In this document: piece after piece, positions 31,808 to 36,757 of the stretch
Numbering within the stretch: position 1 is the stretch's first letter
Layout of the letters: each line of letters opens with the position of its first letter
Source: Nitrosospira sp. NpAV
Lineage (GTDB): Bacteria > Pseudomonadota > Gammaproteobacteria > Burkholderiales > Nitrosomonadaceae
DNA: 64,000 bases
Assembly (NCBI RefSeq): GCF_000832065.1
Contig: NZ_JXQM01000017.1
Span: 1-64,000 of the forward strand
Direction of reading: 5' to 3'
Notes under the pieces: generated by a model
The model's input: only the letters and a program-made list of their open reading frames with translations
What the model was told of the DNA's origin: nothing
The model's database searches: none
Position numbers and translations under genes: made by a program

Positions 31808-32398
31808 ATGAGCAACCTCGTTGCAGCAGTGCATCCCTATCTGGCGCAATACGGCTATACGGCATTGTTTGCCGTGTTGTTTACTGAGTCGTTCGGTCTA
31901 CCGCTACCGGGAGAGACCTTCCTGATTGCCGCGACCTTGCTCGCAGTCAATGAGCAGCTCAGTATCGTCGCGGTGGCTGGTTGGGCGATAACGGCAGTGG
32001 TTCTGGGAGATAACGTTGGCTATCTGATTGGTCGCCGGAAAGGGCATCGCTGGGCGATAGGCCATGGCAGCCGTATCGGCATCACCCCTGCGCGGCTTGA
32101 GGCTGTGCAAAGATTCTTTGACCGGTTCGGACCTGCGACAGTGATTGTGGCGCGCTTTTTTCCAGTGTTGCGGCAATTGAACGGTATCTTTGCCGGAAGT
32201 ATGCGGATGCCATGGAGGAAGTTTGTCGCCTACAACACGCTTGGCGGTATATTGTGGGTAAGCGCCTGGACGAGTGGCGTCTATTTCCTGGGAGACCGGA
32301 TCGAGTTGTGGCTGATGCGGATACATATAGCGGGTTGGTGGCTTGCCGGACCACTGATTGCCAGCATGGTTTGGTTGATTTATCGCAATTCAAAGTGA
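31808..32398 (+). CDS. DedA-family membrane protein
   Basis: A 196-residue SNARE-associated/DedA (VTT) protein with about four to five membrane segments. The family signature is visible: FTESFGLPLPGETFLI near residues 25-40 and ARFFPVLRQLNGIFAGSMRM near 115-135, with the G-[RK]-x-G-x region (IGRRKGHRWAIGHG). DedA proteins are linked to lipid carrier recycling (undecaprenyl phosphate) and membrane homeostasis. It lies 81 bp after prpC and has no obvious role in propionate use. Confidence 0.85.
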   Translation: MSNLVAAVHPYLAQYGYTALFAVLFTESFGLPLPGETFLIAATLLAVNEQLSIVAVAGWAITAVVLGDNVGYLIGRRKGHRWAIGHGSRIGITPARLEAVQRFFDRFGPATVIVARFFPVLRQLNGIFAGSMRMPWRKFVAYNTLGGILWVSAWTSGVYFLGDRIELWLMRIHIAGWWLAGPLIASMVWLIYRNSK

Positions 32399-32558
32399 AT
32401 GCAGTTGGTAAAGAAGGGAAAATAGGGTTGCCTGTCCGGCCTGAGGATGATCAGGCATGACGATAGTACTGAAGGGACCCATACGGTGCAATGCGCTCCG
32501 CTTATTGACGCCCTAAGTTGTACGTATGTTGCTCTATTCAATTCAGCCTCAAATATTG

Positions 32559-32921
32559 ATGCGCTTTCTTCTCTTTATCATAACTGCGGCCTTGGCCGGG
32601 TGTAGTCACCTTTCTCCGGTCACCACACCGGTTGGGGAGGGAAAAGTGGGTATCGACGCACCAATTACTTATCGCTGCAAGAGTGATCGCATCGTGAAAG
32701 TGTCTTATCATTCTGGCACCATGGCCGTTGTGGAGTATGAGGGAAGGGTGCGCGAGATGATCATCGCCATATCGGGCAGCGGGGCACGCTACGCCGGTGG
32801 TGGATTGGAGTGGTGGACGAAAGGAATGGGACCAGGTTCGGAAGGCATGCTTCTCAATCACAGGAATGACGGTACTCCAGGAGACATAATCGAGCGGTGT
32901 GTTCAGGCGAGCGCCGGATGA
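32559..32921 (+). CDS. MliC-like lipoprotein, possible lysozyme inhibitor
   Basis: A 120-residue lipoprotein: signal peptide MRFLLFIITAALAGC with lipobox LAGC, so it should be lipidated and sorted to the outer membrane. The body resembles the MliC/PliC domain: YRCKSDRIVKVSYHSGTMA, SGSGARYAGGGLEWWTKGMG. MliC proteins block C-type lysozyme by inserting a conserved loop in its active site. Two Cys in the mature part could form a disulfide. An in-frame ATG at 32526 is less likely as it would bury the signal peptide. Family call is moderate. Confidence 0.65.
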   Translation: MRFLLFIITAALAGCSHLSPVTTPVGEGKVGIDAPITYRCKSDRIVKVSYHSGTMAVVEYEGRVREMIIAISGSGARYAGGGLEWWTKGMGPGSEGMLLNHRNDGTPGDIIERCVQASAG

Positions 32922-34572: not shown

Positions 34573-35991
34573 TCAGTCTGGTCTGTGTTCTTTCGTGTCC
34601 GAGATGGAATCTCCCGGCGGAGCAGCATATATATTAAGCAGTATTTTAAGAGCAGTGAGTTTTACCTTCCATGAAGGAATGCTCGCGGGATCTATCGATA
34701 AACCTGCCACCAACTCCTCTACGCCGTTGATCTGCGCGGACTCACAGGTAGACAGAAAATGCCACAACTCATCGCTACTGGTAATGCCCGTGTGCCGGAC
34801 AAAGTCCGGATAATCCTCGCGCAAATGTGCCGCAAGCCAAGCTTGGTCTATCCACTGCTTTAACTGATTGTAGGTGAAGCAGGTGCGTACCGCCAAATCC
34901 ACGGCGTCGGCGTTACACAAATTTTCAATATTGTCATAACCTTCACGTTCCAATCTCAACTCATGGGCGTAGCTCATGCCGGCAAGCATGGAAAGTGGCA
35001 GCGCACGGTAGTTGTCCCCGGGGATATTCCTCATCACTTTGAGCGCGACGCGCTCGATCGCCAGTGCGGCCCGTTTCGGATAAAAGCCGAAGAAAAAGCT
35101 CAAAACGGGAAGCAGGCTAAGGCTCGCTGGTATGGTTGTACCTGTCTCATCAGAGCTGTCCCCCGAATCTTTATTGGCGGATGGAGCTTCGGTAGCAGAT
35201 GAAGCCTCGGTAGCGGATGGAGGTTGAGCAGTGTCATGGGCCGATACGGCAACTCGCGTCGCAGCGGGTTTGGAGTCCTCAGGAAAGGTGAAGTGGAAGA
35301 CGAAAGAAAGAACCAATGCCAATATGCTCGCGACGATCATGCGGATGGCGCCATCGACGAAAGTGTGGGAGGTCAGGTCCAGCGTGAAGTATGCGCGCGC
35401 GACCGAGCCGATGAAATAAATGTAGGCGCCCAGGAAACCATATTGGAACGCGGTCAGATTGCGGACCAGATGGGAATAATACGCCTCCGGGTTTTTTTCG
35501 AATAATTCGGCGAAAGGTCCCATGGTCAACATATTCGCACCCAGACTAAAATCTACGCCTCCGTCCGCCGAGGAAACTGGTTTGAACAACAACAGGATAC
35601 AAATACCGAGCAACACGATGATGGTGGTCAGCCAGACACTGCCCCGATAGGTGCTGAAGGAAGCGCGGCGCCCCATTCTTCTACGGATCTCGCCCCGGCG
35701 CGCAACCGGAACCTCACGCTGAAGCTGACGTTCCTTCCGGTTGGTCATGGTCTGGATATAGGTCAAGGCGAGAGACGGCACGACCAGCACCGCCAGTAGC
35801 GCCATAATCAGGTTGTATTGAAAGAAAACGGGATCGAACCAATGCGCAACGGCCCGAAAATCATGGTACTCAACGTCTTTGGGGCCCAGGGCGGATTCCA
35901 CCCCAAGACCCACAATGAGAAGTGTCGGTACCACAAATACCAGCCAGTCGTACCAGGGCATCTTCCACTTATTTTCCTCGGTCTGATCCAT
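34573..35991 (-). CDS. Unrecognised six-TM protein with C-terminal helical domain
   Basis: A 472-residue protein I do not recognise. Six hydrophobic segments lie at about 15-31, 57-79, 119-137, 183-201, 215-235 and 288-304. A strongly basic loop (84-110, many Arg) suggests a cytoplasmic segment after TM2. Residues 246-286 are Ala/Ser/Thr/Glu-rich with the tandem TEASSATEAPSA. The last 160 residues are soluble and helical, with GYDNIENLCNADAVDLAVRT and LKQWIDQAWL. The start is decided by a strong AAGGAGGATGC just before the ATG at 35991. Its upstream neighbour, a lipase-like gene, ends 10 bp away, so the two form an operon. Confidence 0.7.
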   Translation of the reverse strand: MDQTEENKWKMPWYDWLVFVVPTLLIVGLGVESALGPKDVEYHDFRAVAHWFDPVFFQYNLIMALLAVLVVPSLALTYIQTMTNRKERQLQREVPVARRGEIRRRMGRRASFSTYRGSVWLTTIIVLLGICILLLFKPVSSADGGVDFSLGANMLTMGPFAELFEKNPEAYYSHLVRNLTAFQYGFLGAYIYFIGSVARAYFTLDLTSHTFVDGAIRMIVASILALVLSFVFHFTFPEDSKPAATRVAVSAHDTAQPPSATEASSATEAPSANKDSGDSSDETGTTIPASLSLLPVLSFFFGFYPKRAALAIERVALKVMRNIPGDNYRALPLSMLAGMSYAHELRLEREGYDNIENLCNADAVDLAVRTCFTYNQLKQWIDQAWLAAHLREDYPDFVRHTGITSSDELWHFLSTCESAQINGVEELVAGLSIDPASIPSWKVKLTALKILLNIYAAPPGDSISDTKEHRPD

Positions 35992-36001
35992 GCATCCTCC
36001 T

Positions 36002-36757
36002 TCAGCTTGGTTTGCCTTCCGCCGCAGCCATGGCATCGACAGCGGCCCGAGTCCAGAAATCAAGATGGTCGAAAGGCCGGATGGCCCGCCTATTCGGCAG
36101 ACCGAGGCTCCACCCGAGCAATTCGATATGGTCGGTACGCAGAATACCGCGGAATTCTCCCCACTGTGCCGATTCAACGGGCACCATGCCGTCATTGGCT
36201 GCCGGAATTGCCCGTCCAAAGTATCGTAGCCAGAAGGGTTGCTCATCGAGTGGACGATGACCGGCATAGGACGAGTAGACCACGTCAGAGCGATCCGGGA
36301 TGGGTGCGGCGGAACGTGCCTCGGGGGTCAATTCACTCAAGCCAGGATTGCCAATGTGCCGAACCCAGGCTGGAATCACTCCACGTGATTCGAGCACCCA
36401 TGTTGCCACGGGCGTGCCGCGATGCGGCGTGGCAACGGTAAGCAGACTTTTTATACGCCGATCGGGATCAAGATAGGCAATCAGATGACGGGCATCCAAT
36501 CCCCCCATGCTGTGTGCTACCAACGCAAAGGCTGGCGCATTACTGCTGAAAAGCTGCTGCGCGAGCGCCTCCGCACGTTCGACTATCGTTCCGGAGGGCG
36601 GTACTTCCGGTATGAGAGGAATAATATGCACCCGGCGCAATGCATGCTCGACGCCACGAAAACACTCAATCGGTCCGCGACGCGAAAAACCAAGAAAACC
36701 ATGCAACAGTGCCAGCGTGGGGAGGACCATAAACATGCTCGCTATAGGATAATCCAT
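36002..36757 (-). CDS. Lipase-like alpha/beta hydrolase
   Basis: A 251-residue alpha/beta hydrolase. LLHGFLGF is the oxyanion strand; the nucleophile elbow AHSMGG puts Ser83 in place; VATPHRGTPVA follows as in triacylglycerol lipases and PGAP1-like esterases. Candidate acid and base are Asp189 (AANDGMVPV) and His210 (RTDHIELLG). There is no clear signal peptide, though the N-terminus is mildly hydrophobic, so it may act in the cytoplasm or at the membrane. It is the first gene of a two-gene unit with the six-TM protein. Substrate unknown; lysophospholipid or acyl-ester hydrolysis is a guess. Confidence 0.8.
   Translation of the reverse strand: MDYPIASMFMVLPTLALLHGFLGFSRRGPIECFRGVEHALRRVHIIPLIPEVPPSGTIVERAEALAQQLFSSNAPAFALVAHSMGGLDARHLIAYLDPDRRIKSLLTVATPHRGTPVATWVLESRGVIPAWVRHIGNPGLSELTPEARSAAPIPDRSDVVYSSYAGHRPLDEQPFWLRYFGRAIPAANDGMVPVESAQWGEFRGILRTDHIELLGWSLGLPNRRAIRPFDHLDFWTRAAVDAMAAAEGKPS

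What the first reader, a model, noticed from the sequence alone, without database searches (positions are those of the whole stretch)
34573..36757. Lipase-like hydrolase coupled to an unrecognised six-TM protein
The hydrolase ends 10 bp before a membrane protein with a perfect Shine-Dalgarno. The membrane protein has a basic cytoplasmic loop, a low-complexity acidic segment and a C-terminal helical domain I cannot place. An enzyme plus membrane partner of unknown family, inserted between prpD and acnA, is the best candidate in the window for an undescribed two-component unit (membrane lipid remodelling, defence or toxin-type action are possibilities).
Basis: partly seen in the sequence, partly recalled or inferred. 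Interest (0 to 1): 0.55.

Follow-up and report, generated by a model that had tools for sequence, protein, structure and literature searches.

The report
Cytoplasmic lipase-like enzyme with membrane partner
Ammonia-oxidising bacteria carry a conserved gene pair, a lipase-like enzyme plus an undescribed membrane protein that ends in a recognisable protein-docking type of domain, which may hold the enzyme at the inner face of the cell membrane.

Summary
Both genes are real: 36002-36757(-), a 251-codon serine hydrolase, and 34573-35991(-), a 472-aa membrane protein, 10 nt apart with AGGAGG between. The window lies in a Nitrosospira-like ammonia oxidiser. The pair is a conserved unit: 32 of 33 family genomes with a full membrane gene also have the hydrolase, directly upstream on the same strand. 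It is kept at several unrelated sites and in versions whose membrane protein is only 35-40% identical. The hydrolase has a true-lipase fold, a Ser83-Asp189-His210 triad intact in 60 of 60 homologues, and no visible signal peptide. The 'unplaceable' C-terminal domain is a dual helix-hairpin-helix like RadA/RAD51-N and NusA-AR2 (residues ~327-392). The membrane part matched no family searched. The pair is in 22 of 23 genus genomes, in most loci at one site; no relative was found among plasmids, nor of the membrane protein in a viral-contig scan. This looks like a lineage core function, not defence or a toxin. Best reading: a cytoplasmic lipid or ester hydrolase docked to the inner membrane through the HhH domain. 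Substrate and contact are inferred, not shown.

The parts
36002..36757 (-). alpha/beta serine hydrolase of lipase fold (P0002); likely true start at Met10 (36730)
36509..36511 (-). catalytic Ser83 codon (AHSMGG elbow)
   Evidence: Ser in 60 of 60 homologues
36191..36193 (-). catalytic Asp189 codon
   Evidence: 60 of 60; aligns with the Asp of the QNDG motif of Burkholderia lipase 1ys1
36128..36130 (-). catalytic His210 codon
   Evidence: 60 of 60; aligns with the His of the NHLD motif of 1ys1
35996..36001 (-). Shine-Dalgarno AGGAGG between the two genes
34573..35991 (-). membrane protein with predicted cytoplasmic C-terminal dual HhH domain (P0001)
35815..35841 (-). W-F/I-DP..F.Y signature (residues 51-59): in 33 of 33 distinct family proteins, 0 of 10 more distant ones
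35641..35751 (-). basic loop, residues 81-117, predicted cytoplasmic
35134..35283 (-). low-complexity acidic linker, residues 237-286, predicted periplasmic
34816..35013 (-). dual helix-hairpin-helix domain, residues 327-392, predicted cytoplasmic

Best explanation
A co-translated two-protein unit of ammonia-oxidising Nitrosomonadaceae. The first gene makes a cytoplasmic serine hydrolase of true-lipase fold. The second makes a polytopic inner-membrane protein whose cytoplasmic dual helix-hairpin-helix domain, with the conserved TM4-TM5 hairpin, docks and positions the hydrolase at the inner face of the membrane, so that it can cleave an ester (most likely a membrane-lipid acyl ester or lipid-derived ester) there. 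Shown: real genes, conserved pairing and order, intact triad, predicted lipase fold, HhH identity of the C-terminal domain. Inferred: topology, cytoplasmic location of the enzyme, physical docking, lipid substrate.
For: Pairing: hydrolase directly upstream, same strand, in 32 of 33 family genomes with a full membrane gene; 32 of 36 genomes with a strong hydrolase have the membrane gene; 125 genomes searched (Fisher P 3e-24 without correction for ancestry). The pair is kept in several different neighbourhoods. Gaps of -20 to +34 nt in 30 of 31 distinct pairs; the 31st value (L019, -179) is an artefact of an inferred start. Enzyme: triad in 60 of 60 homologues; the 50 structural matches shown are mostly bacterial lipases, Z 16-18, rmsd 3.3-4.0 over 211-233 residues; the protein starts directly on its first strand, no signal peptide visible. 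Partner: HHH_5 in 5 of 15 family members (best E 7.7e-5), DUF4332 in 4 of 15 (best 1.4e-4), listed at E<=1; profile match to the RadA N-terminal domain, E 0.0013; model residues about 327-392 match RadA and NusA-AR2, Z 9.1-9.4, rmsd 1.5-2.3 over 59-63 residues. Between the window protein and the four diverged paired proteins the HhH domain is the best conserved region (38-41 of 66 identical); in nine unpaired distant homologues it falls to 16-20 of 66. Precedent: the dual HhH domain NusA-AR2 binds the enzyme SuhB, Kd 94 nM (PMC6614801, passages read).
Against: No direct evidence of contact or of a lipid substrate. Another family (f79) has the hydrolase with intact triad in 30 genomes of the sample, mostly without the membrane protein (strong in 4 of 74 f79 genomes); where both occur (G490, G519, G618) they lie on different contigs. 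So the enzyme family does not need the partner. Nine distant homologues of the membrane protein keep the HhH domain without the hydrolase beside them (L077 has flank on one side only), so the domain is not specific to it. G367 has the membrane gene without hydrolase; G405 has a second, solo copy. Higher identity of the HhH domain in paired proteins also reflects closer kinship. In the SuhB precedent, entry of SuhB into the full transcription complex did not need AR2. The membrane part of the model is poor (mean pLDDT 53.9).
Confidence: 0.45

Rival explanations
1. Co-transcribed pair with linked metabolism but no complex: the membrane protein transports or senses a compound (for example an acyl ester or its product) and the hydrolase processes it in the cytoplasm.
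For: Both families also occur apart; the conserved TM4-TM5 hairpin with Asp205 and Arg217 could be a transport or sensing core.
Against: No match to any transporter family. The strongest conservation between the two diverged paired types is in the HhH domain (38-41 of 66) rather than the TM4-TM5 hairpin (30-34 of 59), though the difference is small.
Confidence: 0.3
2. Defence or toxin unit in which the hydrolase damages membrane lipids on a trigger sensed by the partner.
For: Enzyme-plus-membrane architecture; weak LmuA match of the hydrolase (E 0.014); one solo copy of the membrane gene lies beside a phage-type integrase gene (L090); distribution in genus g2 is patchy.
Against: In 22 of 23 genus genomes, at one site in 15 of 22 loci; no PADLOC model for the partner; none found in plasmids or, for the membrane protein, in a viral-contig scan; triad invariant and dN/dS low.
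Confidence: 0.05
3. Lipase and lipase-specific foldase pair (LipA-LipH/Lif type): the membrane protein folds the lipase for secretion.
For: Among the closest PDB sequences are P. aeruginosa and Burkholderia lipases (1ex9, 1ys1), which are foldase-dependent (recalled), and the partner is encoded directly downstream.
Against: No signal peptide visible; the partner has at least 4 membrane segments with its helical domain predicted cytoplasmic, not one anchor with a periplasmic domain; no foldase family match at E<=1.
Confidence: 0.05
4. The HhH domain binds nucleic acid and tethers DNA or RNA to the membrane; the hydrolase has an independent role.
For: HhH domains of RadA and of DNA-repair proteins are relatives; one hit (L082) reads as a Y-family-polymerase-like protein that matches positions 289-374 of the profile only.
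Against: No GxG hairpin of DNA-binding HhH seen in the domain (reading; motif recalled); no clear positive charge (residues 306-472: 17 K/R, 23 D/E); it does not explain the pairing.
Confidence: 0.1

Closest known systems
Bacterial true lipases, families I.1-I.5 (P. aeruginosa LipA 1ex9, Burkholderia lipase 1ys1, Geobacillus lipases)
   Same: Fold (VIA Z 16-18), Ser-Asp-His triad in the same motifs and the TPHRG segment
   Different: Shorter (about 242-251 aa against 285-390 for most), no visible secretion signal, paired with a polytopic membrane protein, 13-23% identical
NusA acidic repeat 2 / RadA-RAD51 N-terminal domain / Pfam HHH_5 and DUF4332
   Same: Dual helix-hairpin-helix fold of residues 327-392; NusA-AR2 binds an enzyme, SuhB
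   Different: Here fused to the C terminus of an inner-membrane protein; the window protein itself stays below the Pfam cut-off (DUF4332 E 0.11)
LipA-Lif (LipH) lipase-foldase operons
   Same: Lipase gene followed directly by the gene of a membrane-anchored helical protein (recalled)
   Different: LipH acts on the lipase in the periplasm (start of the abstract of PMC13381987 seen in a search listing; single anchor recalled); here several membrane segments and a predicted cytoplasmic domain
Ciliate mitochondrial ribosome protein mS79 (6z1p_BK)
   Same: Sequence and fold match to the hydrolase (E 1.4e-7; Z 17.1)
   Different: A ribosomal protein in another context; no bearing on function claimed

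Membership tests
Bacterial true lipase superfamily (alpha/beta hydrolase) | Ser-Asp-His triad in lipase order | tested here: met
   60 of 60 distinct homologues with bits>=100; Asp189 and His210 align with those of 1ys1
Bacterial true lipase superfamily (alpha/beta hydrolase) | lipase fold | tested here: met
   VIA Z 16-18 to lipases, rmsd 3.3-4.0 over 211-233 residues; model mean pLDDT 69.5, pTM 0.78
Secreted true lipase (family I) | signal peptide for export | tested here: not met
   conserved start about 4 residues before strand 1; by inspection, no signal-peptide program run
Secreted true lipase (family I) | activity on long-chain acylglycerols | not testable with these tools
   needs an enzyme assay
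Dual HhH domain (RadA-N / NusA-AR2 / HHH_5) | dual HhH fold | tested here: met
   Z 9.4, rmsd 1.5 over 59 residues to RadA 2zub; Z 9.1, rmsd 1.8 over 61 to NusA-AR2 6ib8; pLDDT 61-83 over residues 331-390. Z under 13 can be a common arrangement in helical models, but sequence profiles agree
Dual HhH domain (Pfam HHH_5, DUF4332) | curated Pfam score for the window protein | tested here: not met
   DUF4332 13.1 bits against cut-off 23.2; HHH_5 not listed
Lipase-specific foldase (Lif/LipH) | foldase Pfam family | tested here: not met
   not among Pfam matches at E<=1
Lipase-specific foldase (Lif/LipH) | single anchor and periplasmic helical domain | tested here: not met
   four strong and two weaker membrane segments; helical domain predicted cytoplasmic by the positive-inside rule, prediction only
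Known anti-phage defence system | match to PADLOC models | tested here: not met
   membrane protein none; hydrolase only LmuA E 0.014
Known anti-phage defence system | patchy, mobile, island-borne distribution | tested here: not met
   22 of 23 genus genomes, one site in 15 of 22 loci; in genus g2 the distribution is patchy, however

The most novel reading that the evidence does not exclude
An undescribed membrane-docking system in which a polytopic inner-membrane protein uses a NusA-AR2-like dual HhH domain to recruit a cytoplasmic lipase to the inner leaflet, forming a conserved lipid-remodelling complex of ammonia-oxidising bacteria.
Probability: 0.35. Interest if true: 0.5.

Novelty: new variant of a known kind. 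Interest (0 to 1): 0.36.

Why it matters
It defines an unannotated family of membrane proteins and a conserved enzyme-partner unit in a group of ammonia oxidisers. If the docking reading is right, it would show a helix-hairpin-helix domain, known from DNA repair and transcription factors, used as an enzyme-docking module at a membrane, and would point to a lineage-specific lipid or ester turnover step in nitrifiers.

Tried and rejected
Defence and toxin reading: rejected as unlikely. Foldase reading: rejected. First weak hits: L003 reads as an ammonium-transporter-like protein hit through low complexity, dropped; L004 (same gene as in L084) reads as a true distant homologue, kept. L082 (G560) reads as a Y-family-polymerase-like protein sharing only the HhH region, and L083 (G443, E 0.001) was not followed; both were dropped from the distant homologues (9 kept: L074-L081 and L084). 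Hydrolase hits in 11 family genomes at E 1e-29 to 1e-3 were dropped as other hydrolases, leaving 36 of 47. Two partial membrane-gene hits (G351, G409) were dropped, leaving 33 of 35; among the 33, G414's gene is cut by contig ends and the hits of G311, G312, G323, G330 and G403 came in pieces of one open frame. My first pattern for the WFDP segment missed two sequences; it was recounted with a wider pattern. Foldseek on the membrane model gave no match at E<=0.001 among 120 at E<=10; the transmembrane part is therefore untested, not shown to be new. PHROGs gave nothing useful. Literature: listings for Nitrosospira with lipase and membrane protein, Nitrosospira with comparative genomics, hydrolase and lipase, Zetaproteobacteria with lipase and membrane, DUF4332 or helix-hairpin-helix (10 of 434 listed) showed no paper on this pair; only listings were seen, and the library holds open-licence papers only. 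Promoter scan: 6 promoter-like sites against 2.5 expected, two of them on the minus strand between the hydrolase and the dehydrogenase gene; 2 terminator-like sites against 3.1 expected; not used as evidence.

Full report
What is there. The two ORFs exist as described: hydrolase 36002-36757(-), 251 codons, and membrane protein 34573-35991(-), 472 aa, 10 nt apart with AGGAGG directly after the hydrolase stop. Relatives start at the hydrolase's Met10, so the protein is probably about 242 aa. dN/dS against two relatives is 0.11-0.19 for both genes. The genome in which the window lies (G000, 3.45 Mb, 315 contigs) has one match to the pair's DNA and one to each profile. Flanks are prpD on one side and a short-chain dehydrogenase and then acnA on the other.

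Distribution of the pair. A scan of a collection holding one genome per species found 22 relatives of the membrane protein, in records named Nitrosospira, Nitrosovibrio, Nitrosomonas or only by family or order. tblastn puts the hydrolase directly upstream in 21 of 22; the exception, L024, has 539 bp of contig before the gene, with no piece of the hydrolase found in it. A second, overlapping collection was searched by profile: of 125 genomes of the family, 35 match the membrane profile, 33 of them with a full gene. 47 match the hydrolase profile; I kept 36 with E below 1e-40. 32 have both, and in all 32 the coordinates put the hydrolase directly upstream on the same strand. One genome (G367, probably the same contig as L024) has the membrane gene alone. 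Four (G107, G314, G343, G351) have the hydrolase without a full membrane gene; of these, G351 keeps a fragment of it directly downstream and G314's hydrolase is in two pieces. Fisher P is 3e-24, not corrected for shared ancestry. In the window's genus 22 of 23 genomes have both; the one without (G399) is 80% complete. Among 31 distinct pairs whose gap was measured, 30 lie between -20 and +34 nt; the value for L019 (-179) comes from a wrongly inferred start.

The pair is kept together at different sites. In 15 of the 22 loci the order is acnA, dehydrogenase, hydrolase, membrane protein, prpD. In L008, L009, L010 and the four diverged loci L085-L088 none of the ten window genes tested other than the pair was found in the fetched flanks, yet the pair is there (tblastn E<=1e-20; L087 has only 6.9 kb). 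L009 and L093 are the same record and count once. L025 has acnA on one side but another gene on the other. The diverged members (genus g2, which I read as Nitrosomonas because one of its genomes carries the N. mobilis contig) are 35-40% identical over the aligned membrane protein and 41-47% over the hydrolase, and still paired. This argues for a functional unit better than the count alone.

The hydrolase. Pfam gives only alpha/beta hydrolase families, PGAP1-like best at its cut-off. PDB sequence matches are lactonising and triacylglycerol lipases and a ciliate mitoribosomal protein, mS79. The model (mean pLDDT 69.5, pTM 0.78) matches mostly lipases at Z 16-18 with rmsd 3.3-4.0 over 211-233 residues. 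Ser83, Asp189 and His210 are present in 60 of 60 distinct homologues of 100 bits or more, and the last two align with the QNDG and NHLD motifs of Burkholderia lipase. The protein starts almost on its first strand, so a signal peptide is unlikely. Beyond the window's family, 30 of 299 sampled phylum genomes have a relative at E<=1e-15, all in one family, f79 (I read it as Zetaproteobacteria from gene content, untested). There it lies directly after a gene that reads as purF in 11 of 13 loci looked at (purF confirmed by NCBIfam in the two tested).

The membrane protein. No usable match in Pfam, NCBIfam, PADLOC or PDB with the single sequence. A profile finds distant homologues in other families: matches in 11 of 398 phylum genomes including the window's own, and in 10 of 299 with the wider profile, also including it. 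Of nine distant homologues that I kept, none has the hydrolase beside it. With these, the C-terminal domain becomes recognisable: HHH_5 in 5 of 15 members and DUF4332 in 4 of 15 at E<=1, best 7.7e-5 and 1.4e-4, and a profile match to the RadA N-terminal domain at E 0.0013. Independently, the modelled residues 327-392 (pLDDT 61-83 over 331-390) match RadA, RAD51 and NusA-AR2 at Z up to 9.4. Charge distribution puts the basic loop 81-117 and the HhH domain in the cytoplasm and the acidic linker 237-286 in the periplasm (prediction). The membrane model itself is poor (mean pLDDT 53.9) and supports no statement about its fold.

What distinguishes family (paired-type) from distant proteins. The segment W-F/I-DP..F.Y (residues 51-59) is in 33 of 33 distinct family sequences and in 0 of 10 more distant ones; two of the 33 (L024, L090) have no hydrolase beside them, so the segment marks the lineage and only probably the pairing. 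Between the window protein and the four diverged paired proteins, the HhH domain (38-41 of 66 identical) and the TM4-TM5 hairpin (30-34 of 59) are best conserved, and TM1 and the linker hardly at all. In nine unpaired homologues the HhH domain falls to 16-20 of 66. Kinship explains part of this.

Mechanism. I take the enzyme to be cytoplasmic and held at the inner face of the membrane by the partner, with the dual HhH domain as the docking module. The precedent is NusA-AR2, a dual HhH domain that binds the enzyme SuhB with Kd 94 nM, although SuhB's entry into the full transcription complex did not need it (PMC6614801; passages read). A lipid or other acyl ester at the inner leaflet is the most likely substrate given the fold. 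Pairing, triad, predicted fold and HhH identity are shown; docking, topology and substrate are inferred. Rivals are a transport-linked metabolic pair (0.3), a nucleic-acid tether (0.1), a foldase pair (0.05) and a defence unit (0.05).

Novelty. The hydrolase belongs to a known kind. The membrane family is undescribed in the libraries searched, and the combination with a dual HhH domain was not met in the searches listed under Tried and rejected. I rate it a new variant of a known kind, of moderate interest because no function is shown.

Noticed in passing
L090:7501-8934(-) (genome G405): A second, solo copy of the membrane protein (about 62% identical) without hydrolase, near a phage-type integrase and a pentapeptide-repeat protein; its WFDPVFF segment has changed to WIDPVLF.
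   Followed up: partly
L008:9651-14130, L010:9651-14233, L025:9449-13780: Downstream of the pair in these three loci lie two RoxA-like cytochrome genes (Pfam shown for L010; the others read as the same).
   Followed up: partly
L118-L122, L124-L126, L128-L130: In family f79 genomes the hydrolase relative directly follows purF, often in an apparent radA-cvpA-purF cluster (purF confirmed for L118 and L119 only; other names by reading).
   Followed up: partly
L132:7011-7646(-) (genome G107): A shortened second copy of the hydrolase in a genome in which no membrane protein was found.
   Followed up: no
window 31808-32921: A VTT (DedA-like) gene and an MliC lysozyme-inhibitor lipoprotein gene lie between prpC and prpD; MliC was found near prpD in only L006, L014 and L015, and beside the pair in L019, at tblastn E<=1e-20.
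   Followed up: no
window 36002-36757: The hydrolase's best single PDB sequence match is the ciliate mitochondrial ribosomal protein mS79 (6z1p_BK, E 1.4e-7).
   Followed up: no
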